Shown piece after piece: positions 39,133 through 61,450 of a stretch of 64,000 nucleotides of DNA. This DNA is from Margaritifera margaritifera (lineage: Eukaryota; Mollusca; Bivalvia; Unionida; Margaritiferidae): contig JAQPZY010001297.1 in assembly GCA_029931535.1 (NCBI GenBank), positions 62,001-126,000 on the forward strand, in the 5' to 3' direction. The notes under the pieces are model-generated. The model worked only from the letters and a program-made list of their open reading frames with translations, made no database searches and was not told the origin of the DNA. How positions within the stretch are numbered: position 1 is the first letter of the stretch; the number at the start of each line of letters is the position of its first letter. The translations under genes and the position numbers were made by a program.

Positions 39133-39889
39133 GATCTTTTGTCAAACGTATTATGAATGTAAGGCAATAATTATTAGGAATGTCGTAAAACTATCGAATC
39201 TGACGTGTATGTCTCGTATCTTGTTTGTCATGTCACGCATGTATTCTTGATCTGATAGAATTGAATTAAACTGTGTTAGGCTCGAGTCCAAAAACTAGAA
39301 ATCTGTATAGTTTGTGATTTTCTAAACAGAAACTGCCACATTGTTCCATATCGAAGCAGTAGATGTAAAAGGGACGTTTTGCACTAACCTGTTGGAAGGG
39401 GGGGGGGGCAGCTGTTTGGGGATGCCTGTGGTGAATTTCGGTTATCCGATTGGAGGGTAACCACTAACGTCTGCATGACATCTATTCGCACGTTACGTTT
39501 TTGCATGCGATTTAGTACTGTATTGCCATGATTGCGTGCATATTCATTTTTATAAACGAATAGCTCTTTGTTAGGTCTTGGTTCAGCTGTAAACTCTTGC
39601 AGACTCAGACCAACATATATATATTTTTTTAATCATAATCGTCGTAATTATCTATCCACCTCGGCAGATCCATTGCTTTTTTTTTTTTCTCTCTGAAAAA
39701 AATCTATATTTAAATGAAACGCTAGGGAAAAATATAGGTTGTCAGGCCGGCCGAGCCTGGCGGCGCGGACTTGTTATTGAAAAACCACATCGTATGCTGG
39801 AGGTTCGCTGGGAATATGCCATGATTCAACTGGCTGTAGTTCCAACGGTTCTGTCATTTTTATTGTTCCAACAGACAACACACAGCTTA

Positions 39890-40365
39890 TTAAGAGTTCC
39901 CTGCGCGATTTTGTATGATCTCCTCGTGGGCTTGGACTGTTCCGCGACCTATGGGTTTTGCCACTTCGTCCATAAAAACTGAAGTGTATGCCTTGTCCGA
40001 TGCAGCCCGTATTTCATTTTTCATGGCTATGTATTTGTCGAGTTCATCGAGGATAAGATAGAACCCTACTTCGGAAATGGCGTTGTCGCGTAGCTCCATG
40101 TGGTCTGCGATTGTACTGAGCTTTGACCCAGATTTCATCGCGCATTTTAGCTTCTATGGATAGTAGCCGGCTAGCAAAAAAGCACAGCTGTCGAAAGTAA
40201 GCCCCAGCTTATTGCTGTTATTACCAAGGATAGAACTAGAGAGGCCGCAACGATTGTTGACCATAGACCAACCCAAGGCACTCCAGTGCCCATGGACACA
40301 GTCGCCAGAGTGGCGTGAACTTTATCCACCTCGTTTATTACGCGCTTGTGCTTATATAGCGACAT
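39890..40365 (-). pseudogene. Virus-like membrane protein with helical C-terminus (locus A)
   Basis: Starts at the ATG overlapping the upstream stop (TAATG at 40363-40367). The first frame (40365-40171) encodes a basic N-terminus followed by a long hydrophobic stretch, LWSTIVAASLVLSLVITAIS, probably one membrane helix or hairpin. After a frameshift, 40138-39890 encodes a charged helical segment with LDELDKYIAMKNEIRAASDK. That these form one gene is an inference from spacing and strand. The function is unknown; small membrane proteins are common in this virus group. Confidence 0.45.
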
Positions 40366-40870
40366 TATGATTCCTCTATAAGCAGCGTGATGTGAAAGTT
40401 GAATTGATCTGGAGGGGGTGGGGAGTTAGCTTCCCTGCGGAGACGCTCTCCTAGCATGTCCCCGTGGTTTACTGGCAAGACGGCGATGATGTCAAAGAAA
40501 ACGTCAGTTTTCTTAATATCTTTAGATCCAGAAATGATACGGTCTTCAACACACCCGCTAAAACGATCGCCCAGAGTTACAAATAGCACACATTCTGGTT
40601 GCAGTTTGAGTGATTGTTTTTCTGGCCGATTACTGTGAAGCGGCAGAGCGCTTCTTTTCCAATTATAACTGCTTGTTGGGGCTTTTATCTACCGGTGGGA
40701 CGAGTGATAGAGGGTCCTAATACTCTGAAGGAAAGGTTATCGCCGAGGGTGTTTCGCCTAATACCGCGTTGTCATTGTAGTAGCAATGGCGACGTGAACC
40801 CCCGAGTGCATTATTTTTTGCTGTTGTTCCGACAAAGAAATTGAAATTAACCCTAGCTGCTCACTGTTGG
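40365..40870 (-). pseudogene. Unassigned virus-like gene, C-terminal part readable (locus A)
   Basis: The open part at 40589-40365 encodes 74 residues including DRIISGSKDIKKTDVFFDII and ends FHITLLIEES at a TAA overlapping the next ATG. Upstream (to about 40870) the frame is broken. Its position between the fibre-like genes and the membrane protein, and its beta-rich C-terminus, would fit a minor capsid or attachment protein. No diagnostic motif supports that. Confidence 0.35.
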
Positions 40871-40945
40871 CTTAGAATTCTCTGGGTAACCACAGTGATC
40901 GATGTTCATCTGCTTTGCATCCTCGTTCCACCCCAATCTGAACCG

Positions 40946-42055
40946 CTACGTGTCAACCCCAAGAAGGCGTTTATATTCTCGCACCAGTAGTTTGTATTCA
41001 TTGTCGATGTCATGAACTTTTTGTGCGAGGATTGGCAGGAGGGACCAATAATTTGTGTTCTGATCTATGTCTGGTCGCTCCCCATTACTTAATTTGTGTT
41101 GCCTAAAGCTAAGTATAGCGCGAGTTCTAATTGCGAATGCCAAAGATGGTAAGAGTGTCTGAGAATCCGGACTCTTGTGCTTTGATATTGAGACCGTCAC
41201 AATGGATAATGTCTCCAGCGGGATACAAAGACGCATAGCTCGATGTAAACTTTTCCTGTGAGATGTTTGTCAGAACGACAGGCTGATAACTATTGTCAAT
41301 ATGTGCAAGTACGACTCCGTTTACATAGATTGAAAGCGTTGCCCATGTTCTGACACTACAATTTCCAAGGAGATTATTAAAGGAAAATCCGGCGCCCTGG
41401 ACGGAGATAGTGTCGTGTTGTTGCTGAGAGTTAAACCACTAACGTTATGAAAGTTTTGTGTTGAATCCCAGTGATAGTAACCAGACGTATGTATTGCTAT
41501 ACTCTCGCTGACCGACCATATATTGTCGGCCGTTAAGTACATGATCGCAGGAAAACAACGTTTCCAAAAATAGGATGTTATTACGCACGGCACGGTCGCA
41601 GCATCGTCTGGCAGGTCAGGTACTCTGTTAGTGACGACTTTGTTTCGTAGCAACATCCTGAGAGTCGACAGGATCACGTACCTATATGATTACGTTGTTA
41701 TTCATCACCAGCGCAATGCTTATTGTAGCGCAGGTCTTTGAGACCCAACATCGTCAATATACTTTTTGATATTTTTGATAGATATACGTCCATCGCTTAG
41801 TGTACCATTGTCGCTGACAACTGCAAAGTGCTTGGCTACAACGTCGACTGGTTTAATACGGAGCGCAGATACATCCACGCTCGAGTTTTTAAGGTCCCCC
41901 ATGGCACCAGAAAACACCACAAGGTCATTTGCGTCTGCAATAATAGCTCGACTGGGAAAGGCCGCGAGTTCTGCTTTCGTTGCGCATTCGAAGCGATCAC
42001 CATGTTGGATTCCGACTCCTGAGATAACAGAGCGTCCATAGATGTCTACAAGCAT
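40946..42055 (-). pseudogene. Fibre-like structural protein 2 (locus A)
   Basis: Starts at ATG 42055, preceded by the leader TTGGTGTAAACACAAACC, which is closely similar to the leader of fibre-like gene 1. The intact first 111 codons contain ATKAELAAFPSRAIIADAND and FAVVSDNGTLSDGRISIKN. The GTLSDG-type turn is common in trimeric fibre/tail proteins. The frame then breaks; later pieces include YYHWDSTQN (about 41470) and GDIIHCDGLNIKAQESGFSD (about 41190). A C-terminal helix, VHDIDNEYKLLVREYKRLLG, ends at 40946. The middle and late pieces have counterparts in fragment C (60.93-61.45 kb). The role is inferred: virion spike or fibre. Confidence 0.5.
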
Positions 42056-42152
42056 GGTTTGTGTTTACACCAATTTAAAGGGTCTGTCTCCAATTAACAA
42101 TGGCGCTTTTCGTCAGTGTAAGCGCGGGCAAATCAGAAGTGAGTGTTTATGA

Positions 42153-43192
42153 TTAGACAATATCGTCTATTGTGTAGAGCTGCCAGTATGAAAGGCCAGG
42201 ATTAGTCTTTTCAGAACCCACAATAAATAAGCGGCCAAAGTGGTAGGCCACAGTAGGTAAAGTGTCAATAATACACGTACAGGCCAATAATGGGCTAATC
42301 GGAACATTTGACTCATACTGATCTGTCCACAGTTTATCATCCAGTTTTTCGTATTCAGCCGGATTTCCTTAAAGTCGAAAATGTGTGATGCGTTTTGAAA
42401 TGTCGAGCTGTCCTGTCACGTCGAATTTACGAGGTTTTATTTTGCTGAAAAAAATCACTTGTATCCAATCTTCACTTTTCGAGCGACCATTCTTAAGTTT
42501 CTGGATGAATGACATGAAATCCTGGGTATATGGCGTCGTACTCAGAACTTGCTTTAACTATGAAGCCGTTATCGCTATCATTGGAGAGATGTGTTTGGAC
42601 AAATCCTATGTTGTTTTTGACCATACGGCTATTTGCGTATGCTTTCTTAGTCGCGTTTTGGAACTCGGTGCGGTCTTCCACGGACACGATTTTGTTAAAG
42701 CTTATGTTCAAGATGCCTGTCATGTGGTCGCCGGTCTTGAGAACCCTGAGTGCGTCGTGGCTGTCGATATATCTGTTCGAAGTGGCATTTCGTGGCTGAG
42801 TATCATCAGTCAGGTTAAGAACATAGCCCGGGCAATACTAGCGACTTAAGACCGGCCAATAGGCACAGCACCATCGCTCAATGTACCATGGGCGGCAAAG
42901 ACAGAAATGTTGCCGGTTGCTACATTGGCTGGTTTGGTGAGACGCGTAGAGATGTCTACGACCGAGTGTTTAAGGATAACACTACCAGGTCATTAGAGTC
43001 TGCGTTAATAGAGCGGTTGCTAAAAGCCGCAAGGTGAGGTGTGGTCGAGAAGTTGATGAGATCAAGCGCGCTTATTTTTTCAGCCAAAACGGCAGTAGCA
43101 CGGGAGATGCCAGCGCTTGAAATACTGGAGCATTGTTCGTGTTTACACCATAAAAAAAAAATAAAAAAAAAGAAAGACAGGTATGTCTCCAA
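42153..43192 (-). pseudogene. Fibre-like structural protein 1 (locus A)
   Basis: The leader TGGTGTAAACACGAACA precedes an ATG at 43133, but the first codons are out of frame with the body, and A-runs disrupt the leader. The body reads PHLAAFSNRSINADSNDLVV and NVATGNISVFAAHGTLSDGA. After a frame change comes DDTQPRNATSNRYIDS, then HMTGILNISFNKIVSVEDRT with NATKKAYANS. These two segments resemble the NxxNKIxxVxDPT...ATKxYVDS repeats known from phage-type tail fibres. A readable C-terminus ends LSYWQLYTIDDIV at the stop 42155-42153. It parallels gene 2 in order and N-terminal motif, so the two are probably duplicates. Confidence 0.52.
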
Positions 43193-43221
43193 TTATCGTC
43201 AGTTGATAGATAACACCACAT

Positions 43222-43667
43222 TCATCGATGGTTCGGAGTTGGATTGCGCTCAAGCGCCTTGTACTCCGTGATGGACAGGGGGACTACAAGTCGGCCCGTC
43301 TGTCTTTTTTTAAATCGGGAGTGTAGAGTAGGCCAGCGACAGACTTCGCCCTTCTTTCCTTCTTTTAGACCACTGCTGCCCTTGGTGGTGACGTCAACGA
43401 CTCCCTTGAGAGCAAGACCACCAGCTGTGTCAACCACGCCGCGCGCTGCTGCCATGGCGTTGGCTACCAGAGCCGGAATAGAAAGGGCGGGCAGGATGTC
43501 TTGGTTTTGAGGTGCTTTGTCTGGCCGGTCGATAGCATGATTGGGACAAGCCTATAAATGTTGTCTGAGAATAGCAGGAGGGAGACTCCGTTGCCTGCCT
43601 TTATGGAGTCGGCAACCTTTCCCAGCTGGCCTTTGGAGAGGGACACTAGTTGTTTTTCGTACGGCAT
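43222..43667 (-). pseudogene. pX-like small virion/core protein (locus A)
   Basis: Starts MPYEKQLVSLSKGQLGKVAD at 43667. A SKGQL-type repeat and IKAGNGVSL are followed by SDNIYRLVPIMLSTGQ. After a frameshift near 43510 there is an Ala/Gly-rich hydrophobic segment, AMAAARGVVDTAGGLALKGV, then a basic C-terminus. Short basic proteins with this N-terminal repeat plus a hydrophobic Ala/Gly core sit next to the capsid gene in adintovirus/Polinton-type genomes. The related piece in locus B lies at 55.69-56.08 kb, also directly after the capsid C-terminus. Confidence 0.5.
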
Positions 43668-43787
43668 TGTGTTGTCGTTTCGACTGTTCTAGTACAAAGT
43701 ACCGCAAACGTATGTAGGGTTCGGCTGTGTCGTTTCAATGGAGTTTTCTGTGCTGGCGTCGATGACCTTCATTCACCCGCCGGCGCC

Positions 43788-44993
43788 CTAGAGTAGCAGC
43801 GCTGTATAATTGGTAACTGCGCTCTTTGCGACGCGGGCTTTAAAGTACATGTCCACAATAGACTGTTTGACCAAGTAGAGGTGTTCCAGGTTGAAGTGGC
43901 AGATTGGGTCGAGGCCGGTGAAGTCTTAGTGGCTAATCTGGAGTCCCGAGTTCACGTTTTTGGTCACGTCCCAAGTAGATCAGGATTTGGCGGTAAGCGT
44001 ATGTCATGTTGTTGTTTTCGTGGTCTTAAAGGATTTTTCGGCCGGCTTCTGGTGGCCGTTAAGACACTGGTTTATCTCAGAGACTGAGCTTATCAAATAC
44101 CATCGGGTTGCGCTCTTAATCATTTAGCAGTGTCAGGTTCTGGAAGGCAGCAAATATGTGCCTGGGTGCGGTGATATCCTGCTGGGCTCTGGTTTGCCAG
44201 TAAAACTGGCCGTTGACTTCTCTTTGCGGGGCGTCAGGGTCGCGGCCTGAAAGGCGAGGGTGCTCATGCCCCCATGCATTAGGTTAAGCAGGTTGGTTTT
44301 CGCCACCAGCGACGGCGCTACAGCTGATATCCAAAGGGCGTGCTTTGGGAGCGTAACCTTGCCTTCAACCGCGGCATCGCTACGGAAAATGGCGTCATCT
44401 TCGGTATTTATAAGCTTCAGCGCGATGGTGTGCTTTGAGACATTGCGCGTAAGATGTGGGTTAGCGGTATGGCACAGGAAAAGTAACCGTGCGCGTCCAT
44501 CTGAGCCTTTCGCAACGTGAAGTCTAGATTGAAATTGGGTGGTTGCTTCTCACTATATTCCCGCGGCATTTGTGACCTCTATCAAAGTAAAGTGGCCATC
44601 GTTGACGTGGTCTGCTATGTCCTTTGTAAACATCAAAGATGGACCGGCGCTGCGGGCGTAGTCATCGCTACAGCAAGCAAGGCCGAGGGTTGCAACATCG
44701 ACGTTATCCAGACAGGACTCAACTTCTTTTTTATCGATGAGATAGCGGGCACTTCCGAACCGAGCCATTACAGCGTTGTAGGCAAATGCCACCTTGTCCG
44801 CTGCGGCGTAATCTATCCCGTCTGCCTTTGTGAGTTTGCCGACAAACTCGAACAAGTCTTTGGAGGGTAGAAAGTAGCGCGATATGCCCTGCACATGTAC
44901 CTCCACACGACCTTTTTGATTGGACTCGCGGGCTTCGTACGAGTGGTACTGCAGGTAGCGGATGCTGCGGTCACGGAGCACATGGACCCCCAT
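43788..44993 (-). pseudogene. Major-capsid-like (hexon/double-jelly-roll-type) protein, broken (locus A)
   Basis: The intact N-terminus at 44993-44553 (146 codons) includes LRDRSIRYLQYHSYEARESN, RYFLPSKDLFEFVGKLTKAD and VAFAYNAVMARFGSARYLID. These resemble the start of hexon-like capsid proteins of this virus group. Frameshifts follow. Downstream pieces include HIFAAFQNL (about 44150) and AYRQILIYLGRDQK (about 44000). The C-terminus near 43900-43788 reads FNLEHLYLVKQS before ending YTALLL. The last part matches locus B (FSLEHLDLVKQS at 55.6 kb). At about 400 codons it is shorter than usual for such capsids, suggesting internal deletion. Confidence 0.5.
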
Positions 44994-45211
44994 ACCCTAA
45001 CAATAACCATAAGATTTGGAAAAAATGCCATTGCAAAGGATATGTTGCCTTACGATCATCTTCTAATATGTCTGTAAAACTGGTCACATTGAATGAAAAT
45101 AGATATAGTGTAGTGTCACTGAAATGTGAGATAAGTTTATTTTGACTATATTCTCCATGATAGAACAAACATTTTCTTTCTCCTAAGCCTTTTGTTACAG
45201 TCCATCATCAC

Positions 45212-45674
45212 GGTATCGGACCACTAATTATTTTACAGCCAGGGAACCAGTCTACTGGTGGGGTAAAAAAAATAAAGTACTAAATCTTTTGAGATGCGCC
45301 CATTGGGTAATAATGGGTTCAATTTTGTCCCATTATTAATTTCACAAAGTTCAATCTATGTACTATAGCTGACAAAAAATATTTTCTTTCATTTTAATAT
45401 CGTGTATTTAATTTCCTACTGACAAAATAGCATATGTACTCTTGGTGCGAGGCTATGTTATTAGGTGCAGACCAGCGATCCCCCCTCCCCCCGTATAGCA
45501 TCACGAGATTCGAAAACATGCTGCGGAGCACCTGTTTTTTAAGGCTGAAAAAATTTCTCTAACTTTAATGAATGGATCCATGTGTGGTTTGCATGCCAAG
45601 CTAGTGAAGAATTTTTTTTTTTTGTAATATATTAACATTAAGTTCTATGGGAAATGAATTAGTGGTCCGATCCC
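45212..45674. mobile_element. MITE of 463 bp with TIRs and TCAC target duplication
   Basis: The left terminus GGTATCGGACCACTAATTAT and the right terminus, read inverted as GGGATCGGACCACTAATTCA, form TIRs of about 22 bp. TCAC flanks both sides directly (45208-45211 and 45675-45678). The interior is non-coding with short C- and T-runs. Confidence 0.75.
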
Positions 45675-45689
45675 TCACATATTACTCTA

Positions 45690-46572
45690 TAAATTACAGT
45701 ATTATGGCATTAACGGAGAAATTCTTTAGTGGCTAAGTATGCTCCTTAGCAAATGACATATGCAAATTGTGGCTGATGGTGAGCAATCCGAATCAGTGAC
45801 CGTTGATTCCGGTGTAGCACAGTGCACTGTGCTTCGTCCCATATTTGTGTGCTACATAAATGACCTTCTCCTTACAGTTAAATTACAAGTTCGTCTCCTT
45901 ACGTATTGAAAATCCGAGCTCAAACTTGTATGTGGTTCAGTGCCAAACAAATGCTATCTAAGGATATGCAGTGGAGTTCACACATTGCCAAAATCACCCC
46001 AAAAACAATTGATCCGTAGCGTCTTGAAAAGAAATGTTAAACACTGCCCTCAAAATTGCCGTTAATCGACATCCTTGGCATTAATCTGTCAACATTATAA
46101 TATGGGTCGATTTGTTTTACCGAAACTATTCCTGCGATATAGACCGACATATAAAGATTCAGCGTCAAGCTGTTAAATTCGTCATTTGTGATTATAAATC
46201 CAGAGCTGTGAGCCGTGTAACAGGGATGTTAGAGAACCCATAACTGCCTCCTAACAAAGTAAATGCTGCATAAACAGACTTGTTGTCTTCTACAACGTGG
46301 TTGGAGATTTGCTTCCGGCTATAGATTTTCTAAAAACCTTGACTACATAACGTATTATTAGGACAAAGCAGTTCAGAGATTTCGAAAGTAGAAATATTAT
46401 AGTAAAAAGAGCAATTTGCAATGTCAGAACATTCTATGCAGAACAATGTAACACTGATCAATGTCAAAACTCTTTCTTTGTGAGAACCACTATAGACTTA
46501 AATAACCTTGATGAGAACATCGTGCGTGGAGAAACAGTGGAATACTTCAAGTACAAAATATCTTACTTCTAA
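45690..46572 (+). pseudogene. LINE fragment: RT palm to C-terminus, heavily decayed
   Basis: Broken frames read as the second half of a non-LTR reverse transcriptase ORF. Near 45800 there is VTVDSGVAQCTVLRPIFVCY followed by INDLLLTV, the degenerate VPQGTVLGPLLF motif. Near 46150 IQRQAVKFVI is the thumb-type segment. Near 46460 NSFFVRTTIDLNNLDENIV ends the ORF tail. Many stops and frame changes; no ORF remains. Confidence 0.6.
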
Positions 46573-46599
46573 CATTATTTACTGAAATTGAGATATTAA

Positions 46600-47070
46600 A
46601 TATATCTATACTGTTGACGAAGGACACAAGGCTATTTGAAATCTTAAAAATAATAATGCTGCGGGTCGACATCATTAATGAGTATATACAATCTGCTGAA
46701 CCTATTTTCAACATTTATATAATTCATTTTTATATCAAGCTTTAAACAGTGGCATTTTATTCCATAGTCTAGGTTATATGATTAATACAACCAATATATA
46801 ACAATAAAGGTGATAAAAATCTTCCCTCTACCGACCTATTATACTACTGAGTTGTTTCGGAAAATTGTTCAACTATAATTTTAAAATGCAAGACTTGCGG
46901 ACTTGGAAGAGAATGGTATTTTAAAGGAAAATCAGTCTTGTTTTAGAAAAGGTTATTCCACCTAAGATAATATTTTTCTCTCTACATGCATTTGTAGAAA
47001 TTTTAAAAGCAAGAAAAAAGAATTTATTTTGTGTATTTGTCGTTTTCGAAAAGGCATTCGACGCTGTCTT
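46600..47070 (+). pseudogene. LINE fragment: RT fingers region, decayed
   Basis: Frames contain AAG-type N-terminal finger remnants (about 46660). Near 46930 NQSCFRKGYST is followed by LFCVFVVFEKAFDAV (about 47030), the (F/L)..FEKAFD motif A of non-LTR reverse transcriptases. It lies downstream of the palm fragment, so it is a separate insertion or a rearranged copy. It stops abruptly at about 47070. Confidence 0.6.
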
Positions 47071-47171
47071 TTTAATTTAAACATATTTTATTGCATCATT
47101 AAAGAAGCAATTGGGATTGGCAAAAAGTTCTCCATCATAATAGCACTTAGCATAATAGCATAATACGTAAG

Positions 47172-47224
<53 letters not shown>
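47172..47224. repeat. (GA)n microsatellite
   Basis: GA dinucleotide run of about 52 bp. Confidence 0.95.
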
Positions 47225-47228
<4 letters not shown>

Positions 47229-47358
47229 TGAGTGAAATATATAAATATGTGTGATACATATAATACAATTTACATAGGTATTGTGAGTATTCATTTACGA
47301 ACATATGAAGGAAATCAGATCATCAAAAAATTCGTCAGGTTTCCTTAATACAATCCTA

Positions 47359-47683
47359 AACAGCTTTAAACACTTTACAATTGAGATCATAAGATAGTTG
47401 GGATGAACCTTGAAATAACAGGTCAATCGTCGCATGTAAAACAGCTTTAAACACTTTACAATTGAGATCATAAGATAGTTGGGATGAACCTTGAAATAAT
47501 AGGTCAATCGTCGCATGTAAAACAGCTTTAAACACTTTACAATTGAGATCATAAGATAATTGGGATGAACCTTGAAATAACAGGTCAATCGTCGCATGTA
47601 AAACAGCTTTAAACACTTTACAATTGAGATCATAAGATAATTGGGATGAACCTTGAAATAACAGGTCAATCGTCGCATGTAAA
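47359..47683. repeat. 81-bp tandem repeat, 4 copies, inside the LINE 3' ORF
   Basis: Units begin AACAGCTTTAAACACTTTAC at 47359, 47440, 47521 and 47602. At 81 bp each adds exactly 27 codons, so the minus frame repeats GSSQLSYDLNCKVFKAV four times. Only a few substitutions separate the units. Confidence 0.96.
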
Positions 47684-47737
47684 AAGAGGTGATTAAGATC
47701 TAGAGATATGATTCTGCGTTGATCTCCATAATGGTTA

Positions 47738-47738
<1 letters not shown>

Positions 47739-47784
<46 letters not shown>
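47739..47784. repeat. (CA)n microsatellite
   Basis: CA run of about 46 bp within the LINE remnant. Confidence 0.95.
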
Positions 47785-47789
<5 letters not shown>

Positions 47790-47932
47790 CAAACAAACAA
47801 TGAAATGCAGTTTCAGGTGCCTCTCCACAATTACATAATGATGACTGAATTACTTGGTTAGTAAATAAGTTATTATTTAGAGCACTAAAATTATTTCTAA
47901 TTATTGCATGGATGATAGAATATTTCCTCTCA

Positions 47933-47935
<3 letters not shown>

Positions 47936-48009
<74 letters not shown>
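47936..48009. repeat. (TA)n microsatellite
   Basis: TA run of about 74 bp within the LINE remnant. Confidence 0.96.
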
Positions 48010-48012
<3 letters not shown>

Positions 48013-50290: not shown

Positions 50291-50706
50291 ATAGTCAAGT
50301 GACACCAACAAAACCTCCTTTCCAATGTTGCTGTACAAAAATTCGAAAATATTAAATGAATATCACGTAATGTTTGGATACAAACGAAAGTACGCATAAT
50401 TCTCAATATATTTATTCCGAGAAGAACTACCAGAAACTTATCGTTGTCTCAGCAACCTGGAAAAAGCCAGATTCATGATGTAGAGAGCACATGTGAACAC
50501 GGTAGTCACGTGATACCAACAAAAAAAACCTGTTGACATGTGCTCTCTATTTGATGAATCTGGCTTTCTCCAGGTTGCTGCGGCAGTGAATACATATGCT
50601 GAGAAATTTTTTTCTTTTACAATCATTACGTGACTTCTTTCATTTAATATTTTCGAAGTTTTGTACAAAAACATTGGAAAGGGGGTTTAGTTGGTGTCAC
50701 GTGGAC
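50291..50706. mobile_element. Large foldback element (about 415 bp)
   Basis: The left arm 50291-50495 and right arm about 50530-50706 are inverted copies. The outer part carries GTGACACCAACAAAACCTCC versus GTTTAGTTGGTGTCACGTGG. The middle carries TCGAAAATATTAAATGAA and its complement. The inner part carries AAAGCCAGATTCATGATG versus TGATGAATCTGGCTTTCTCC. Arms match for about 170 bp with moderate divergence around a loop of about 35 bp. Open frames on both strands here are consequences of the palindrome. Confidence 0.8.
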
Positions 50707-51319: not shown

Positions 51320-53699
51320 AAAGAATTATTTCATGTTTTTGGGTTGTTGTTGTTGTTGTAATCATTCATCTCTTGAATATTAATAAATCGTATATGCATT
51401 GTTGGTTCCAGTGGCTAACTCGCTGAAAGCAGCGTATACAAAAATTATAATCGCTGAGCAACGTTATTAATTTTCCAGAACGCCGAGCATATCTGTTAAA
51501 CTGGCTACCAGTCGACCACACAGTCGTACATTGTCTAAAGAACGTACACTACTTAAATTCAAAAATCAATCAATCGGCCGACCTCTGGTCTCGCTCATTA
51601 CTCGTGTATGGAGCGAGTGAGCGCAGCAGAAGGCCGGATACAAGTTTACATATTACCCAGGTGGTGCTCATACTATACCAAGAACAGTTTTGAAAATAAC
51701 CAGCGATTTAATCTGTGAATGCGATTGAGATATCTGGGGCAGGATTTCCGGGACTTTGATATCAGAGACGTATCCGAGGTATGAGGATTTTTTTAAGTTC
51801 AGCATATATTTTACAGTTTTGGTGCTTCGTACATAAGTAAAATTTCAGATATATAAATATTCAGGAATTATTCAATAATGCAATTTGTTAACTTTTTTTT
51901 AACACGGAGCATTTTCAGTGACAAGTTTTCGTGGTGTAACAGTTTAAGGTTTGTATGGAGTGGACAATTTTTTTTCTGAACTACTAAATGTCTCATGGAA
52001 TATTTTCGTCCCTAATTTGTGAGGAAACAATATATTTGTATACACAAAAGGCACACAAACATGAAATTAAATTTGTCTTAAAAAATCCATCGACGAATTT
52101 TAATTTTTAAACGATCGTTGATGTGATGACACTCTTAATTTTGTAAGTGAAGCTCTAAACTTTGAAACATTAATACTATCTAGGTATGGCTGGAAAGTGA
52201 AAGTTGCAATTTTTTTGTGTAATACGGGTCTTGATGAATATGTCAATGTTGAATTCTAGTTCTGAACAAAATTATTTTTTAAGTTTTTTCTTTCAAAGCA
52301 CAAAGGAAGGTGCACTGGTCGCCTACGCCTACACATACAAAGCAACCCCCCCCCCAAAAAAAACCAAAAAAACAAAGATGATTTAGTTTTGTTAGGAAAC
52401 TATCTATATGTCAGTGTAACACATAACTGAACTACGTTGGAGTTTCCACTGACCGCCAGTAAGTTATTGTTCTTGTTGTGGCTGTTTTTCGTGTTGTTGT
52501 TGTTGTTGTTGATAATGCTAATGTTGCAGTGTTGTTCTTGCTGTTGTGGACATTTTGCACTGACTCGGTTATCCTTCCCAACTGTGCTGGTGTTACAAGA
52601 CCACCTATGCACCAATCGGCCCACCTCACCCCGGGAATATAATTCCCCCCTCCCCTTCTCAAAAATTATGTAAAGTGAGGTTTTCCCGTGGGTAAAATTT
52701 CCTTCTTTAAGAGCGATCCCCGCCCCCCCCCCCCCAACACACACACACACACACACAAAAGCTTTTTTTTTTCGGGGGGGGGGCAAAAACTGATCAAGTA
52801 GTTTTATATGAATAAAATATAGAACTTCATGCATGCTATTAAAACTATATTTATTAGCAATTGGATACATTTCACAACTTGAGCCATATTTAATTGAGTG
52901 TGTTATAGTGTTTAAAACGTTATTTTCATCTTGCAAATGTTGAATCAATAAATATTTTTGTCAGGATTTATATGAAATGTAGTCAAACAAACAATGATTT
53001 TTAAGTAAAAAATAAAAAGATTTGTTATTTGTTTCTGTCAGAATCAATTTGTTTCAATTTTTCATAAAAGATTGTATCATTGTCATATCATTTTTAAGGC
53101 ATACAGAGCCTCTGCCTTCGCATGCAATGATTACATTTTACTATTTTTCCCGTGACTCTATTTATAAAAGTTGGTATTTTTCTTCAAAAACACTTTATAT
53201 ATAAATAAAATTAGCTTAATCGGATCATATGTCTGATCAAATGGAAATATTCGTTACATTTATCAACTAAAGCAATTTCAATTATTAGGTGAATACACAT
53301 TTTAGTTAAGTTTATCAACTTTTTCTAGATAAAAATACTATGTGGCGCACTAGACTTGGCAGGTCGTTTTATTATTTATTCTTTGTTTCACATATGAGAA
53401 ATTCTATTTGACATAGAAGTTTATATATGCGAAATGTGAACTAAGTCTCTATTTTTCATACATATGAAACTAGAGGTGTTTAGCTGTGAGAATAGTATTT
53501 TGTATATATGGTCGCAGCATAAAATTGGTTTGAATTAATCTCAAATCTCTAGTATTAGTAGTAATGCAATAGAGACTTTGGCCCGCCCGTGGTGGCTAGT
53601 ATTAGTGCAAGTCGTCGATAATTTTTGGTGACTACCTATCCTCGTCGTAGAAAACTTTTGGCGACTAGTAATGAGAGTTTGAGATAGGGTATGCATATA
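51320..53699. other. No gene; simple repeats around 52.5-52.8 kb
   Basis: The content is (GTT)n near 51342 and 52492-52514, a C-run followed by (CA)n at 52723-52757, and a T-run/G-run near 52765-52785. Frames across the 52.4-52.95 kb simple repeats are artefacts. At 53.6-53.7 kb, three degenerate GTCGNNGAAAACTTTTGGCGACTAG-like blocks precede locus B and might belong to its edge. Confidence 0.5.
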
Positions 53700-53721
53700 A
53701 ACGTTTTGGCCACTAGCATCG

Positions 53722-54270
53722 ATGTCAGCCACGACGGCTATAGTGGATAACACGCCTAAATCGAAGGCACGCATGTATTTAGTATTGCACCGATTAAACA
53801 TGGTTCGCTTGCGAAAGAATATGTGCGCGTGGCTGAAACTGGGTAGTAAAGAGCTGTGCCAGCACAGGTGTATAAGCAAATATTGCTGTGTCCACGCCTC
53901 GAGCAGCAGGAAAGGAATGGCGATAGCGTCGTGCTGGAAATGCGGGGTTGGTGTTGGCACCGCACACCGCATTTGCCACGCTGTGGGGGTCTTAGAAAAG
54001 CAACGAAACTGAAACGGATAGGTGCCAAGGCGAAGGAACAATTTGCCAATTTTCTTTGCGAGCTGCTTGCGCGGAATTAGGGTTGTGTTTTACCCAACCA
54101 AAACCGCAATAGTGAAACGGAGGGGTGGTTGCACCACTTCTATGAGAGACTACCGCACCCTGGTGCCCACTGCGCATAGCCTTAAAGCCGAAGCAACCGC
54201 CTTTCTTGATGCCGTGGCCACCAAGCGCGCGGGGAACCGTTGGCAGGGAGATGAGCAACCATGGCGGTGT
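53722..54270 (+). pseudogene. Upstream part of locus B, unassigned
   Basis: Frames at 53722-54012 and 54022-54279 are rich in basic residues and Cys (for example CWKCGVGVGTAHRIC near 53935), suggesting a zinc-binding segment ahead of the polymerase. No family is recognised and the frame is broken. It may be the polymerase N-terminal extension or a separate early gene. Confidence 0.3.
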
Positions 54271-55262
54271 GAAGTTTAGCCTTGGCCCAACTCGAGAAAG
54301 CCGCACCAGGCCAGCAGATAGCCGCCCATGTCACAGCCTATTTCCGTTATGCGGCTAGACCAGGTCGAGGTGCTGGTGTCCCAAGCCAACGCCGCGATCC
54401 AAGAGCGCATCGAAAATAACATGCGCGAGGATTCCGGCTGGCACTTCGCGAGGTGTGTGGAAAATGAACTCCGCATTACGAAGTACCGCCATTTGGTGTG
54501 GAAGGAGTTCGGCTGTTAAAACCAGGGAGACTGCCACGACGTCTACCTGCGAACGGAAGTGCTCCTGCTGGCGGACGTGTTCGAGGCCTTCTGCGCCACA
54601 TCGATGACGAACTACGACCTTGACACACTACTACAGCTCTCCAGGGATGAGCTGGAACGCCTTGCTCAAGAGCAGAGGCGCGCAGCTAGAGCTGATCAGT
54701 TGCCGGCACGCGAAGGCAACCCCCCGATATGTGCCGGCCACGATCCCAGCAAACCCAACAGCTGGATAGCCCACATGACACCCACAACCTCTAAGGCTGG
54801 GCCATGATGCAAAGCCTGACGACGGGCGGGTTTTGTTGGGCGGCGCCCAAACAGACGGGCGAGTTGGAAAGAGCTATCAGCGCCATCAATTCCGACTCGC
54901 CAAAGGGCTACATTCTCAAGGTCGACATCGAGTACCAGGATGAGCTCCGCGACGCGAACAGCGAATACCAGCTAATCCCTGAGGCTATGGCCATCCCAGA
55001 AGAGTGGATCATTGGCTATTAGCGCGACCTTGTAGACCAGGCAGTACGCAAGTTCACTGAATGCCCGAAGCTAGTTCCGAATCTGCAGGAAAGAGATCAC
55101 TACGTTGTCAACTACCGCACGAACAGCTTGGCTAGTACCTTACTGAGCTCAAAACAACCCAACGGTACAGATGAGTATCGGGTGGTACCACTTACAGCTC
55201 CTCCCGGACAAAGCGTCCGGAAAGATGGTACACAGAAGGCTGGCCGGGGATGTCGAACCGAT
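54271..55262 (+). pseudogene. Protein-primed-type family B DNA polymerase, partial (locus B)
   Basis: The N-terminal conserved region at 54328-54519 has MRLDQVEVLVSQANAAIQER and DSGWHFARCVENELRITKY. After a stop, 54510-54680 carries CHDVYLRTEVLLLADVFEAF, the exonuclease/early palm-side block of viral protein-primed polymerases. Next come DPSKPNSWIAHM (54745) and DSPKGYILKVDIEYQDELRD (54895). QERDHYVVNYR lies near 55090. The frame contains stops (for example at 55021) and internal deletions. The polymerase catalytic YxDTDS region is absent, because the sequence passes into capsid-type sequence by 55.44 kb. It is therefore non-functional. Confidence 0.68.
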
Positions 55263-55439
55263 CGGTTAGGAGGTATGTTTAAAGCGACCACACGGGGTCA
55301 GTAGTACGGCGCATCCCACTGTCCATCTCCTCACTTGACGTTTCGTTGACATCAAGGACGTGGATGCCTGCCTCGACAACGTTGATGTTGACAGAGCAAT
55401 CCTTTTTGGCAGAAAAAAAAAATTGATCAACTGTCTTTG

Positions 55440-55690
55440 AACGGTCACTAGGAGCCGACCGAGGCAATCCAGCTCGACTATGAAGCCAAAAATGTGGCCC
55501 ACACCTACCGCCAGATTGTAAGCTTAATCAGCCGCGACCAGAAGATTGACATCGGTCTTCAAATCGGGCAGAACGACTTCGCCGGTCTCTGCCCCATCTA
55601 CTACTTCAGCCTGGAGCATCTCGACCTAGTCAAGCAGTCGGCCGTGGACATGTTATCCAAGGCTTCTGTCGCGCGTCATCCTCTCAGACT
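55440..55690 (+). pseudogene. Major-capsid-like C-terminus (locus B)
   Basis: Open in the frame starting near 55494. It includes TYRQIVSLISRDQKIDIGLQ, then NDFAGLCPIYYFSLEHLDLV. It matches, segment by segment, the 3' end of the capsid-like gene in locus A (AYRQIL...GRDQK and FNLEHLYLVKQS). The upstream three quarters of the gene are missing, fused directly after the polymerase remnant. Confidence 0.5.
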
Positions 55691-56085
55691 AAACGCTGCT
55701 GCTGGAGGGGACAGGGAACGAATGAGGGTGGTGGACGCCCACGCAGAAAACACGATTACGAGCTCGTGGTGGCAAGGAAGGCCTACCAGAGTGCCAAGCT
55801 GCGGCTCGGCTCTATCGTCCTTTACAGGCGCCACCCACTCATGCTGACCACCGCCCAGGCCAAACGCCTATGGGTGGCCCGTAATCCAATCGGCTCCATC
55901 CCTGAAAGTTATGCACAAAGAAGGCGGCATCTTTCCCCTGCATGCCCTCCCGCCCTTGCAGCCGTCGTCAAAACCGCGACGCTTGGCGCGGCTGACCACC
56001 TAGTAGCCTAAAACGTTCTCAGGCGCAGCGTTGACTGCAAGCGCCTGCAAACTAAAGGCAAGGGCATCCGCCTGATGCGGCAGTG
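55691..56085 (+). pseudogene. pX-like small virion protein (locus B)
   Basis: Frames after the capsid tail contain YELVVARKAYQSAKLRLGSI and RHPLMLTTAQAKRLWVARN. After a frameshift, an Ala/Pro-rich segment FPLHALPPL and a terminal basic part follow. Position and composition (basic N-terminus with a LTTAQ/LSTGQ-type repeat, hydrophobic core) parallel the locus A gene at 43.2-43.7 kb. Confidence 0.42.
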
Positions 56086-56099
56086 AGGGAGCTCTCCAA

Positions 56100-56350
56100 C
56101 TTCAAACGGCTGCGGCCCGCCCACCCCTGAAGCACATCTCTTGCATCTACATGCGCGACGAGCTGGCGCACCTGCCAGTGTGCGGTGGGAACGAGGCCGG
56201 CAAGGTAAACATTGACACCTCGCAAAATCGCGTGACGCATCTGGTGGCGTTCCGGGCGACGCCTGTCCGATTGCTCTACGTCGACTCGTGCGGCCTCGCG
56301 CCGCCGCCTGAACTTCCGGGGCGGCATCCCTCTACTTCACGCTCACTGTC
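56100..56350 (+). pseudogene. Adenain-like cysteine protease fragment (locus B)
   Basis: The frame at 56151-56384 begins MRDELAHLPVCGGNEAGKVN and continues with IDTSQNRVTHLVAF, then LLYVDSCGLAPPPEL. The order N(I/L)D...(T)H(W/L)VA...(F/V)DS(F/C)G..PP is the His and Asp/Glu region of adenovirus-type (C5) proteases, which cleave capsid precursors. The usual Trp after His is Leu here. No downstream Gln/Cys catalytic block is found, and the frame changes near 56330. There is no counterpart in locus A. Confidence 0.58.
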
Positions 56351-57110
56351 CAGAAAAACTTTAACGTGTCCGTCGAGGCGCTGAATGCGCTGGACAGCAA
56401 CCCGACGTCCGGTGCGCTGCTGTAGACGGCGCAGTCTCTTAGCCGCCGTTTATTGGAAACAGGCGGCCTGTGGACATCTTCGGATATTTGCAGAAAGACT
56501 GCAACCTACCGGGCACCGCGGCGGACCTAGCCCAGTATGTGACCAAGGCCTAGCTCGCAGCTTACAGCAATGCAATCGCGTCGACGCCTCAAACCCGAAT
56601 GACATTGTTTTGTTCAACGACATCGCCGGGAACCTAAAAGGCCCTGGCGTAGACGATTGTTTACAGCTCAGTCTGGGCGGCGTGGAGGCGCCGAGCAACC
56701 TCGCGGATTTTAACGCCGACGACAACCTGCACGACAGCAGCAAGCCGTTCAATAGGGCGGAGGCTGAGAAGGCTGCCTGAGGCTCTTCACAAAGTGGCCA
56801 ATCATGGTCGGCCTCCTGGACATAGCCTCGAACAAGACGCGGTTACAAAAAACTTACGTCGACAGGGTTACACGACCCTCCAACTCTGCAGTCTTCTTTA
56901 TGACAGCTAATATACTTACGCTGACGAGAAATATTCTGGTCCCGTTGATCTCCTTTAGGGAGAATCCTAATTTGGCAAGAGTAGAGGGCCATTACATTCA
57001 TTTACTTGATGCGAGTGATGGGACCGCGCTGAGGCCTACCGTTTTTGAGTCAATGGGTATAGGGTCCTGGATTCTTCAACTGGCAACGAATTTAACATCT
57101 AATAATAATA
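56330..57110 (+). pseudogene. Fibre-like structural protein (locus B)
   Basis: Pieces in three frames: NFNVSVEALNALDSNPTSGA (56370) and CNLPGTAADLAQYVTKA (56500). Then ASNPNDIVLFNDIAGNLKG (56590) and LQKTYVDRVTRPSNSAVFF (56845). The LAQYVTKA...ND(I/L)V(L/V)F...G(N/D)LK arrangement matches both fibre-like genes in locus A. The KTYVD element fits the ATKxYVD-type repeat there. It is interrupted at about 57.1 kb by the LINE 3' tail. Confidence 0.45.
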
Positions 57111-57290
57111 ATAATAATGAGGACTTTGTATAGCGCCTAATCTTTAGAAGCTCTAAGCGCTTTACAACATTAGATAACACCTAAAAAACATATATAATGA
57201 TATGATTACGAAAAACAAACACCATGAAATTAGAAAACAAAAACATGCTGAAAATAGTTAAGGTAACGAAACATTATTAAGTCTCTAGGT

Positions 57291-59405
57291 CTATTCTTGC
57301 AGTCGAAATAGGTGAGTTTTAAGAGCACTCTTGAATGAGATCACTGTGTCTTTGTGTCTAAGTTCAGTGGGCAATTCGTTCCACGTTACTGGGCCCTGGT
57401 ATGCAAAAGAACGTTGTCCGTATGACTTCATTTTGATAGTGGGAATAATGAGAATACGAGTGTCGGAAGAGGAGCGTAAGTATCTTGCTGGTGTGTACAC
57501 ATGGGTGAGGTGAGATAGGTATGTTGGACTGGAGCCAGTCAGTGAAACGTAGCATAGAGAACAAATTTTGTGTTTGATTCTGGATCGAATGGGTAGCCAG
57601 TGTAGGGTACAGAGCAGGGGGGAGGTGTGCTCAGTTCGAGGTACTCTAAGAATGATCCGAGCAGCTGTGTTTTAAACTTTTTGAAGTTTCTGGAGTAGAT
57701 ACTGAGACGAACCAGATAGAATTGAGTTACAATAGTCCAGTCTTGAAAGTATAAAGGAACACACAAGTGTTTTAGTGGCATCAACTGAATGATAATTGCG
57801 AATGGAGCTGATGCGTCTCAGCTCAAGATATGCAGCCTTGCATATGTTCATGACATGTTGGTGCAATGAGAGAGTACTGTCTAGAGTAACACCTAGGTTT
57901 CGTACTGACTGTGTGAATTTAATGTTGGTGTTGCTGATATTTATTGTTTGAGGTAAAGGATGTGAATGAGAAAGTCTTTGTGTTGTAATCAGAATAGCTT
58001 CAGTTTTATCATCATTCATCTGCAGCTTGTTACATGTCATCCATGATTTCACATCGGAAATGCACCTCTCTACACCTTGGAGGGTAGCATCAACTTCAGT
58101 TGGGTGGCTCGATTTGTATATTTGGGTGTCATCAGCGTACAATTGGTGAGACACTGGATGACGATCTATGACACTTGAGAGCGGCTGAGTGTATAGAATG
58201 AAGAGAACAGGTCCAAGAACAGAACCTTGTGGAACACCAAAACATAGATCAACTGGGCTGGAGTGTTTTCCATTTGTGGACACAATTTGTGTCCTGTTGA
58301 CCAAGTAGGACTTGAACCATAGTAAGGCTGTATCGTGAATGCCAAATACATGATGGAGACGGTGAAGTAATATATCATGGTCTATTGTGTCAAATGCTGC
58401 AGACAAGTCAAGGAGGGTGAGGACTGTAATCTTTCCACTATCCAAAGCAGAGAGAAGGTCGGTAACTACTTTCAGAAGGGTAGTTTCGGTACTGTGGCGA
58501 GGGCGATATGCAGACTGTACATTGCTAAAAAGACTGTTTGAATTCAGATGAGATACAAGTTGGGATAGAACAACTTTTTCTAAGATTTTTGACATGAATG
58601 GGAGGTTAGAAACTGGGCGGTAGTTCTTTAAATCGTTATGGTCAAGTTTTGGTTTCTTCAACAGAGGCTTTACAATGGCAGTTTTGAAAAATGATGGGAA
58701 TTCCCCGGATGAGAGAGACGAAATAATAACATCAGTTAGTGAAGGCAATATTGGATCTAAGCACTCAAGCAGCAGTGATGTCGGAATCGGATCAAGTTCA
58801 CATGACTTTGGGGCACTCTTCATCATGATTGTACGTACTAAATCCATAGAGACAGGTTCAAATGCTGCTAACGGTTGCCGCTGAAATTCTGTATTGCAAC
58901 TGTATGGCGACGACGAGTCAATTGAAATTGTGTTGTCAAGCTTTTCTCTAATGGTTTGTACTTTGTCACTGAAGAAATTTGCAAACTGGTTCGGAAGGTC
59001 GACTGAAGAGAAGGTAGTTGGAAGTGGTGTGCATTTGTTCCTTGACATTAGCTTGTTAGTAATCTCGAAGAGCTCTTTGCAGCTGGAACTTTCAGTAATC
59101 TTAGTACTGTAGAGGGCTGATTTCGCTGCATGGACTATGTTTGTAACATTCTTTTTAGCGGCGTCGTAGATTTGCTTGTGAATAGTGAGTCTGGTGGAAA
59201 GCCAAAGCCTCTCAGCCTTACGGCGGTCTCTTTTAGCAGTGCGAAGCTGGTCCCTAACACTGCTATACCACGGAGAACACTTGTGAATTGACACTCGACA
59301 CTTGGTTGCTGAGGCATGTTTGTCAAGCAATGAACGCAGGCAGTTATCAAGTTGTCCTGCTGTAGGAGGTAACAAAGTTGTTAGGATTGCTTGGATGTCA
59401 TGCAT
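57291..59405 (-). pseudogene. LINE reverse transcriptase ORF (CR1/L2 group)
   Basis: The uninterrupted 577-codon frame at 59405-57672 carries the RT blocks in order: LKNYRPVSNLPFMSKILEKV, SAYRPRHSTETTLLKVVTDL, LDLSAAFDTIDHDILLHRL, CFGVPQGSVLGPVLFILYTQ, and the catalytic YADDTQIY. It then has KSWMTCNKLQMNDDKTEAIL and VRNLGVTLDSTLSLHQHV. The frame ends prematurely at 57672. The expected C-terminal region continues in other frames (HWLPI-type segment, then GPVTWNELPTELRHKDTVIS at about 57370) to 57291. It copies element RNA at the nicked target in the nucleus. The RT active site is intact; at least one frameshift disables the tail. Confidence 0.85.
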
Positions 59406-60550
59406 TGCTGGGTTCTATTTGTCATACGGAGGTTTCTCTTAGTAGCAAATAAAGGTGGAGGGTTAGGGACTGATACGTCAAGCTGGCATATAATGCAGAA
59501 GTGATCTGATGCAAGTTCGTGGGACACCAGGGAGGACTGTACAATATTATCATCAGGTCTATGAAGAATCCAGTCTAAAATGTGACCATGTTTATGGGTG
59601 GGTTGGCTAACTGACTGTTTGAGGTTGAAAACGTGAATGGAATCTAGGATTTTCGATGTATATGGGTTTCCAGGAGAGTCAAAGTGAAAGTTGAAATCTC
59701 CAAGTATAATCAGGTTGCCACCTATCGAATTTCCATACTCCAAGAGATTCGGAAACTGCTCCAAAAAGAGCGATTCAGTTAGCTTGTTATTTCTACTAGG
59801 AGGAGGGCGGTAGAGGCAGAAAAAATGGACTGACCTTTGTTCCAGTGTGAGTGTGGTTTGGACTAGTTCAAACGATGTGTGGTAGAAACTGAAGGTTGTA
59901 GTGTGATTAAGACAGTTGATCATGAAGTTCTTTGCGATGATGGCAATTCCACCTCTGCGGGAGTGGCGGGGGAACGACTTGATGGAGTAATCGGGGGGTG
60001 TTAGATCCGAGCACTTGGGCTCAACGTCTGATGTTTTTAGCCATGTTCCTGTCAGGAAAAAGATGTCGATATTCTGATCGTTGATAAAATTAACTATTTC
60101 TGTGCGCTTTTTCAGTGGTCCTACTGATTGGGCATTGAATAATGCGATGCGCAGTGGTATCTCTTGGATAGTTGACACAAAGGTTGATGATTTCAGAGGA
60201 ATTTGAATTAAGTTATTTAAATTAACGGACGGAGTTTTCAAATTGCTGTGCCGGAAATGGTGAAAGGGAGATAACTTGAATTCTTCTTCCTGTTCTACTC
60301 CGGCCAGCTTTGAAACGTCAACGTTCTTTTTTCGCTTTCGTTTACATTTAAGTAATGATGAATGTAGTCCCAGGTCGTTTAGTCTAGTGCACAATGTTGT
60401 GTGGAGAGCCAAGGAGTGGTCATTTAAAGCAATTAATGAGGGTCCATCATAGCATAAACGGGTGGACTGGCGAGTATCACGTGATGGCGGTATATTCAAC
60501 AACAAAGGTAGTTGTAGCAGTGGAGCAAGACGGCTGAGAAAAAGTCTCAA
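59381..60550 (-). pseudogene. LINE apurinic-type endonuclease ORF
   Basis: 389 codons. The N-terminal 145 residues form a variable extension with a basic patch KCKRKRKKNVDVSKL. An APE-type endonuclease follows: IRIALFNAQSVGPLKKR-like start, DIFFLTGTWLKTSD, RRGGIAII, FFCLYRPP, LIILGDFNFH, HILDWILHR and HELASDHFCI. The conserved Glu of the ET(W/R) block is Gly here (LTGTW). It overlaps the RT frame by 25 bp in a different phase, so a single ancestral ORF has suffered a frameshift near 59390. Without the Glu, target nicking is expected to be impaired. Confidence 0.8.
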
Positions 60551-60560
60551 TTATGCGCCG

Positions 60561-60929
60561 TGATAGTGTAAGAGACGATGGCGGCATCATGCTGCTCGCC
60601 CAAAATATATCCCACGAGCTGGTTAAGGTAAATGACAACATTTTCTGTTTTTGCATATGGCGGCTATTAATTCCCTAAACTCGGGTACCAGTTATTGAAT
60701 CAAAGTCGAGCAAACCGTGACAAAAATACGCAAGAACTCAGGCTTTCGCTGCTTATCAAAATACTGGCCTAGTTGATTTACATATACCACCCAGCTACAG
60801 ATTGAAGAGTCTCCCTACAACACCGCCTGAAAAAGATCGGCGATATCAAAGCACAACTCACGTTATACCTGTAGACATCTATGTGCGCTAACAAATAGCT
60901 AGCCCCCTCCCCCCACCCCCCACCCCACG
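60561..60929. other. Junction sequence, unassigned
   Basis: Between the LINE 5' end and clear virus-type sequence. It contains GATGGCGGCATCATGCTGCT near 60578 and a CCCCTCCCCCCACCCCCCAC tract near 60903. It may be LINE 5' leader, viral remnant, or both. Confidence 0.3.
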
Positions 60930-61450
60930 CGATTTGTCCCAGTATGCAAAGAAAGCCGACCTCACGACTTTTGCACCTTAGAAAACGCCAGGCGTTAAGA
61001 TTGTGTTCTTTACAGCCAATGTCGCGGTGGTTGTTGGTTTCTCGGGTTTTTCGCCACTGGGACGCAACGCAGAACATTGGCAGTTTCCTCCTTAGCAAGA
61101 ACGGCGACATTTTCACCGTCCCGGGCGCGGGATTACACATAGTAAACCACCGCGGGGTCACGGCGATGGACCGTGGGAGGCGCATTCGATCCGCGTGAAT
61201 GGGGGCATGTGGATCCAAAACAATAGCACAGCCAAGCAGCAGCGTCGAATACGAAAACTTAACTATGTTCGTCGCAGGGAATGTCATCTGGTGCGAGAGC
61301 CTCAATCTCGACGTGCAGGGAACCGGTGCCTTAGCCGCTTAACCGTTTTCAGCCTCCGAAATTGGAACTTGCACCGTGCAAGCAAAGCTATAACGGAGCT
61401 GCCAGGCAGCACTGACGACGAAGCTTGGGCACAACTAGCAAAACAGGCGC
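60930..61450 (+). pseudogene. Fragment C: second fibre-like gene of the locus B copy
   Basis: Begins with DLSQYAKKADLTTFA, parallel to LAQYVTKA in locus B and ATKAELAAF in locus A gene 2. It continues with HWDATQNIGSFLLSKNGDIF near 61055, corresponding to YYHWDSTQN in locus A. Frameshifted pieces follow: VNGGMWIQNNSTA and LTMFVAGNVIWCESLNLDVQ, corresponding to the GDIIHCDGLNIKAQ block. It is cut off by (TA)n at 61454. This supports a two-fibre-gene arrangement in both viral copies. Confidence 0.48.

What the first reader, a model, noticed from the sequence alone, without database searches (positions are those of the whole stretch)
39745..61450. Two related, oppositely oriented virus-like loci 9 kb apart
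Locus A (minus) and loci B/C (plus) share the order capsid C-terminus, pX-like, fibre-like, fibre-like. The protein-level similarity is visible in several separate blocks (for example SLEHLDLVKQS/NLEHLYLVKQS and HWDATQN/HWDSTQN). They differ enough, and in gene content enough (protease only in B), to be independent endogenisations or old inverted duplicates of a Polinton/adintovirus-type virus. Both being AT-flanked and GC-rich suggests foreign origin.
Basis: partly seen in the sequence, partly recalled or inferred. Interest (0 to 1): 0.75.

Follow-up and report, generated by a model that had tools for sequence, protein, structure and literature searches.

The report
Two decayed adintovirus-type insertions
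Two broken, related virus remains lie about 9 kb apart and in opposite directions in what looks like an animal genome; they come from Polinton/adintovirus-type DNA viruses and both keep traces of phage-like attachment fibres, so they are ordinary in kind but unusual in that fibre cassette.

Summary
Locus A (minus, 44996-41166) and locus B/C (plus, 53818-61327) share an antiparallel run of homologous protein blocks: capsid, a small block, fibre, fibre tip. B and C are read as one element split by a LINE. Capsid and protease calls are weak. A carries two paralogous fibre genes; their motif matches a virus-like contig with a related PolB and phage tail fibres. The genes seen are broken: a fossil. 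A and B look like two related viruses rather than an inverted copy of one dead insert (codon pattern z about 2.7; one 223-bp DNA match), but this is not settled. Host and copy number were not tested: the genome search did not complete.

The parts
44556..44996 (-). Locus A: capsid (hexon-like) N-terminal piece
   Evidence: 16-aa block matches B 55342-55389, 62%, E 1.3e-4; no database hit; nothing of note against the L024 capsid-like ORF
44136..44549 (-). Locus A: capsid middle piece, probable double jelly-roll capsid
   Evidence: only Pfam listing at E<=5 is PF21738 DJR-like_dom, E 0.22, below its cut-off; 24.6 bits to an L024 ORF, reached by 0 of 1000 shuffles; the default two-sequence comparison found nothing; no PDB match
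43698..44025 (-). Locus A: capsid C-terminus, in three frame-shifted pieces
   Evidence: three blocks matching B, E 3.6e-7, 1.7e-12, 1.2e-4
43509..43601 (-). Locus A: small conserved block, 'pX-like' (name unconfirmed)
   Evidence: 45% of 31 aa to B 55778-55870, E 2e-4
42496..43192 (-). Locus A: fibre gene 1, with YIDSHDALRVLKTGDHMTG motif
   Evidence: 56% of 34 aa to a 965-aa ORF of L005, E 1.7e-8; PHROG tail-fibre family E 2e-4; phage tail fibres, best E 8e-4 among the 15 of 37 records shown
41723..42064 (-). Locus A: fibre gene 2, paralogue of fibre 1
   Evidence: 44% of 39 aa E 7e-9 and 60% of 25 aa E 3e-7 to two pieces of fibre 1 (single comparisons)
41130..41479 (-). Locus A: fibre tip
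   Evidence: blocks matching C, E 0.002 and 8.6e-4
53818..53988 (+). Locus B: Cys-rich small gene upstream of PolB
   Evidence: 41% of 58 aa to L020 139-312, E 5e-10, 48.1 bits; 1000 shuffles of the piece reach at most 27.3 bits
54139..55142 (+). [quoted passage not shown]
   Evidence: tblastn E 2.3e-31, 4.8e-29 to L020; first block 54139-54216 weak (E 0.06, 0.004); L020 PolB ORF has PF03175 at 2.2e-15; nucleotide 69.8% over 159 and 77% over 66 to L020
55168..55329 (-). Locus B: C-terminal remnant of the rve integrase, convergent with PolB
   Evidence: 48% of 58 aa, E 3.2e-10, to L020 4237-5112 minus, which has PF00665 rve at 7.9e-10
55342..55808 (+). Locus B: capsid (hexon-like), internally deleted relative to A
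   Evidence: four blocks matching A
55778..55870 (+). Locus B: 'pX-like' block
   Evidence: matches A, E 2e-4
56076..56381 (+). Locus B: possible adenain-type protease remnant
   Evidence: 36 aligned columns to two protease ORFs, hhalign P 0.0023 but probability 12.5%; 2 of 1000 shuffles reach the BLASTP score; no Pfam or PDB hit
56574..56836 (+). Locus B: fibre shaft
   Evidence: E 0.007 and 0.008 to the A fibres, and 0.12 for 56774-56836; 5e-4 as a single comparison
57672..60550 (-). LINE inserted between fibre shaft and tip (not viral); its 3' part probably starts nearer 57.1 kb
   Evidence: RVT_1 9e-34 in 57672-59414 and Exo_endo_phos 4e-14 in 59381-60550
61049..61327 (+). Locus C: fibre tip, read as the end of locus B behind the LINE
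   Evidence: two blocks matching A, E 0.002 and 8.6e-4

Best explanation
Two separate germline insertions of related Polinton/adintovirus-type DNA viruses, both dead. Inferred life of the virus: a protein-primed PolB copied the linear DNA, an rve integrase put it into host chromosomes, a double jelly-roll capsid was matured by an adenain-type protease, and trimeric phage-tail-like fibres (two in A) bound the host cell. Shown here: remains of PolB, the integrase end, a Cys-rich gene, fibre genes and a shared capsid-fibre cassette. Inferred: the capsid fold, the protease, and all functions. After insertion each copy decayed by frameshifts, stops and deletions; B was cut by a LINE.
For: PolB: five pieces collinear to database PolBs, many on contigs of 100 kb to several Mb, so probably eukaryotic chromosomes. 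Integrase C-terminus on the opposite strand, convergent with PolB as in L020. Capsid: PF21738 as the only Pfam listing for one piece, L024 ORF with 0 of 1000 shuffles. Fibres. The cassette order is the same in A and B/C, so the fibres belong to the virus and not to a chance neighbour. Separate viruses: codon differences 50/33/76 at positions 1/2/3 in 145 codons, pS 0.65 against pN 0.28; third-position share 0.478 against 0.397 sd 0.030 in 400 neutral simulations with block picking at the same protein identity; in 39.5-46.5 against 53-62 kb only 223 bp align as DNA, all of it in the capsid.
Against: No database match for the capsid, none for the protease in Pfam or PDB; comparisons of the capsid C-terminus and N-terminus with L024 failed, and one search did not reproduce the match under default settings. 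No packaging ATPase found with the ATPase-like ORFs of L024 and L006 among the queries. No terminal inverted repeats: of 63 inverted pairs of 30 nt or more the 25 longest were shown, all AT microsatellite except two local pairs at 50.3-50.7 kb. Fibre blocks in B/C are no better than the control hits when taken one by one. The neutral control is moderate: the maximum of 400 runs (0.493) exceeds the observed share, and at a lower divergence (p 0.21: 0.418 sd 0.036; p 0.12-0.16: 0.44-0.47) the observed value is not unusual, though protein identity in the blocks is then higher (0.60-0.80) than the 0.51 seen. Two independent insertions 9 kb apart is a coincidence that needs explaining.
Confidence: 0.72

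Rival explanations
1. One insertion, later copied in inverted orientation by the host, both copies then decaying neutrally.
For: Same order of blocks in opposite orientation only 9 kb apart; the neutral simulations do not exclude it.
Against: Third codon positions carry more of the change than most neutral simulations at the same protein identity give; DNA similarity is limited to 223 bp of the capsid; PolB and integrase are seen only in B and a second fibre only in A.
Confidence: 0.15
2. One large element with two divergent virion cassettes (duplicate capsids), the stretch between them being part of it.
For: Duplicate capsid ORFs in some adintoviruses are stated in PMC11071296 (passages seen).
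Against: The 45.3-53.8 kb stretch is AT-rich, holds microsatellites and gave no viral match: none with 120 PolBs at E <= 1e-3, best E 0.36 with ORFs of seven GTDB contigs and L006. Three adintoviruses reported as complete or near-complete are 13.3-14.6 kb (PMC8363768, passages seen).
Confidence: 0.06
3. Misassembly joined two unlinked loci or two haplotypes.
For: Microsatellites and tandem arrays between the loci; no reads were available.
Against: A and B are far too different (about 63% DNA identity in the blocks) to be haplotypes; each locus stands by itself.
Confidence: 0.07

Closest known systems
Adintoviruses / bona fide Polintons (Mavericks)
   Same: PolB of this group, rve integrase C-terminus convergent with PolB, capsid and protease traces, germline insertion
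   Different: Fibre pair behind the capsid. Of three papers on these groups searched for 'fiber' (passages only), two have no occurrence (PMC8097293; PMC11071308) and one has a single one, on adomavirus vaccines (PMC11071296). Here the genes seen are broken; ATPase and penton not seen
Contig L020 (JANQFH010000027.1, titled Oligoflexia MAG, probably misbinned eukaryotic DNA)
   Same: Cys-rich ORF, PolB, convergent rve integrase, in the order seen in B; 70-77% DNA identity in PolB stretches
   Different: Only 5.1 kb; no capsid or fibre match on the contig
Polinton-like viruses with phage-like fibres (cryptophyte PLVs of PMC12220804; IMG/VR contig L005, which I read as Polinton-like)
   Same: Fibre motif, 56% over 34 aa with L005; phage-like fibres reported for PLVs (passages seen)
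   Different: PLVs mostly lack pPolB and rve integrase (PMC11071308, passage seen); B has remains of both. L005 has a PolB
Phage tail fibres
   Same: MTG-type shaft motif, 42% over 50 aa at E 8e-4 in one Roseobacter phage
   Different: Similarity is one short module; capsid and PolB are of the Polinton type

Membership tests
Polinton / adintovirus | protein-primed PolB of this group | tested here: met
   locus B only
Polinton / adintovirus | OTU-like domain at the PolB N-terminus (definition in PMC11071296, passages seen) | not tested
   only short N-terminal pieces remain
Polinton / adintovirus | rve integrase with a distinctive C-terminal domain | tested here: met
   C-terminus homologous to the L020 integrase, whose core is rve; no trace of the core itself was matched in B, and none in A; that the C-terminus is a chromodomain was not tested
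Polinton / adintovirus | hexon recognisable by BLASTp | tested here: inconclusive
   A-B homology clear; outside match weak, none
Polinton / adintovirus | adenain-type cysteine protease | tested here: inconclusive
   weak; none; B only
Polinton / adintovirus | FtsK-type packaging ATPase | tested here: inconclusive
   no match with ATPase-like ORFs of L024 and L006 among the queries, but most of both elements is lost
Polinton / adintovirus | terminal inverted repeats and target-site duplication | tested here: inconclusive
   none among the 25 of 63 inverted pairs shown; ends cannot be placed
Polinton-like virus (PLV) | mostly no pPolB and no rve integrase | tested here: not met
   B has remains of both
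Polinton-like virus (PLV) | phage-like fibre proteins | tested here: met

The most novel reading that the evidence does not exclude
An unrecognised lineage of animal-infecting adintoviruses that carries a capsid / small protein / fibre / fibre cassette with phage-tail-like attachment fibres, kept in order through the split of two virus lineages that each entered this genome. Animal Polintons would then have used exchangeable fibres for entry, as PLVs of protists are thought to do.
Probability: 0.35. Interest if true: 0.55.

Novelty: new member of a known kind. Interest (0 to 1): 0.4.

Why it matters
Endogenous Polintons and adintoviruses are common, so the remains themselves are expected. What could matter is the fibre pair: it would give a testable answer to how such viruses attached to animal cells, and two fossils of one lineage in one genome would show repeated germline entry.

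Tried and rejected
Pfam, NCBIfam and PHROGs on single pieces gave little, PDB sequence searches nothing relevant. Protein searches with A 44553-44996 (21 candidates) and with the B capsid piece (92 candidates) found nothing. Viral-contig scans with window pieces found no relatives; a degenerate PolB pattern gave 4 stretches, of which one (L003) matches the PolB pieces; larger baits returned only the same contig. The fibre motif scan gave 6 contigs; only the contig of L003 matches the PolB set, and the ORFs of L008 and L009, the two others I listed, look phage-like by eye. Structure predictions of two pieces had mean pLDDT 41 and 38 and were not searched. A 7-base candidate target-site duplication of the LINE was dropped as expected by chance by my own estimate. 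A possible phospholipase-like match in B (E 0.02; the label is recalled) was dropped: the same stretch fits the fibre shaft better. Literature searches: for fibres or attachment proteins in adintoviruses or Polintons; more general (no paper). I saw titles and the openings of abstracts there; none describes fibres in animal elements, and one search was swamped by phage papers, so absence from print is not claimed. Starrett et al. 2021, which defines adintoviruses, is not held.

Full report
Observation. Locus A on the minus strand and loci B/C on the plus strand share an antiparallel run of homologous protein blocks. In one search, 10 hits at E <= 0.01 were found and all 10 belong to the run; one is an out-of-frame shadow of the main capsid block, and two are the two A fibres hitting the same B fibre shaft. 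The control, A against 18 chunk-strands of 1-36000, gave 12 hits at E < 0.01 in 8 of 18 comparisons (11 printed, best printed 0.001). The capsid blocks (down to 1.7e-12) are far beyond that; the fibre blocks at 0.002-0.008 are not, taken singly, and count by their place in the run. At the DNA level one inverted match exists, 67.7% over 223 bp, E 2e-13. GC is 0.44-0.52 in A, 0.55-0.57 in B and 0.31-0.37 in the DNA between. For 39745-41100 nothing convincing was found; the best match is 40 aa at E 0.002 to contig L016.

B and C as one element. A LINE with reverse transcriptase (9e-34) and endonuclease (4e-14) lies on the minus strand between 57.7 and 60.55 kb, between the fibre shaft in B and the fibre tip in C; in A the shaft and tip lie in the same order without it.

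What virus. A PolB pattern scan of viral contigs gave L003, whose PolB matches four window pieces in order. A protein search with that PolB gave 4493 hits among 7990 scored candidates, of which the best 120 are listed, many on contigs of hundreds of kb to Mb. tblastn of these 120 against the whole window at E <= 1e-3 gives hits that start only between 54300 and 54899 on the plus strand, best E 2.3e-31. The piece 54322-54516 aligns to PolB residues near 160-240 and the next to residues near 700 and beyond, so much of the gene is deleted. A scan of a collection of 84,980 prokaryote genomes with a PolB alignment gave 12 contigs, by their content probably misbinned eukaryotic DNA. One, L020, matches B over its length: a Cys-rich block (48.1 bits, 1000 shuffles at most 27.3), PolB (E 4.8e-29; 69.8% DNA identity over 159 bp), and the C-terminus of its rve integrase, which in the window lies on the minus strand at 55329-55168 (48% of 58 aa, E 3.2e-10). 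The L020 integrase has the rve core domain (7.9e-10). PolB together with an rve integrase is what separates Polintons and adintoviruses from most PLVs (PMC11071308 and PMC11071296, passages seen).

Capsid and protease. These rest on weaker ground. The A piece 44136-44549 has one Pfam listing at E <= 5, the double jelly-roll family PF21738 at 0.22, below its cut-off. It scores 24.6 bits against a capsid-like ORF of L024, which 0 of 1000 shuffles and 0 of 119 other window pieces reach; with the default two-sequence comparison no alignment of note appears, and the capsid reading of the L024 ORF is itself mine, with a weak Pfam listing, PF16903 at 0.26. The A N-terminal piece gave nothing of note against the same ORF. 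The B piece 56076-56381 matches the L024 protease, itself an adenovirus-type endoprotease (PF00770, 6e-6), with 2 of 1000 shuffles and 0 of 119 window pieces reaching its score and hhalign P 0.0023 at 12.5% probability. Profile comparison of the capsid C-terminus failed.

Fibres. The A piece 42496-42837 matches a 965-aa ORF of L005 (56% of 34 aa), a PHROG tail-fibre family (2e-4) and phage records, many annotated as tail fibres (37 of 50,697 at E <= 1, 15 shown, best of these 8e-4). Two pieces of fibre 1 each match the piece 41723-42064, so A has two paralogous fibre genes. Because two diverged elements keep the fibre in the same place behind the capsid, the fibre most likely belongs to the virus lineage. 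The motif is short and shared with phages, so the source of the module is open.

Duplicate or separate. In 145 aligned codons the differences at positions 1, 2, 3 are 50, 33, 76; pS 0.65, pN 0.28. The blocks were picked for protein similarity, which favours this pattern; 400 neutral simulations with the same picking at the same protein identity gave a third-position share of 0.397, sd 0.030, maximum 0.493, against 0.478 observed. At the lower divergence p 0.21 the simulated share is 0.418, sd 0.036, with protein identity 0.60, and at p 0.12-0.16 it is 0.44-0.47. This is moderate evidence that A and B diverged while still working genes, that is, as two viruses. The match in DNA is confined to the capsid, and within 39.5-46.5 and 53-62 kb no flank is shared. 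Equal neutral decay of one copied insert fits less well but is not excluded.

Host. A leucine-rich-repeat ORF (1e-9), a LINE and a Gypsy element suggest an animal; this is inference. The species is not known to me, and the host genome could not be searched.

Verdict. Two dead endogenous viruses of the Polinton/adintovirus kind, B well supported and A tied to it by shared blocks. Ordinary in kind; the fibre pair is the part worth following.

Noticed in passing
window 61529-63316 plus: A Gypsy-type element in which an integrase C-terminal piece (PF22938/PF24626, 3e-5) lies upstream of the reverse transcriptase/RNase H ORF; this order recalls Gmr1-type elements (recalled, not tested), or two fragments lie side by side.
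   Followed up: partly
window 50296-50703: Inverted repeat of 65-nt arms, 91% complementary, 278 nt apart, with a second pair inside (50445-50585); perhaps a foldback element.
   Followed up: no
window 53818-53988 and L020 139-312: A Cys-rich small gene just upstream of PolB shared by locus B and L020; function unknown.
   Followed up: partly
window 890-1324 minus: Leucine-rich-repeat ORF, Toll-like by eye; Pfam LRR_8 1e-9.
   Followed up: partly
window 19836-20853: Tandem array of a 31-bp unit, about 33 copies at 92%.
   Followed up: no
L013-L024: Twelve contigs binned as bacterial or archaeal genomes encode Polinton-type PolBs, so probably misbinned eukaryotic DNA.
   Followed up: partly
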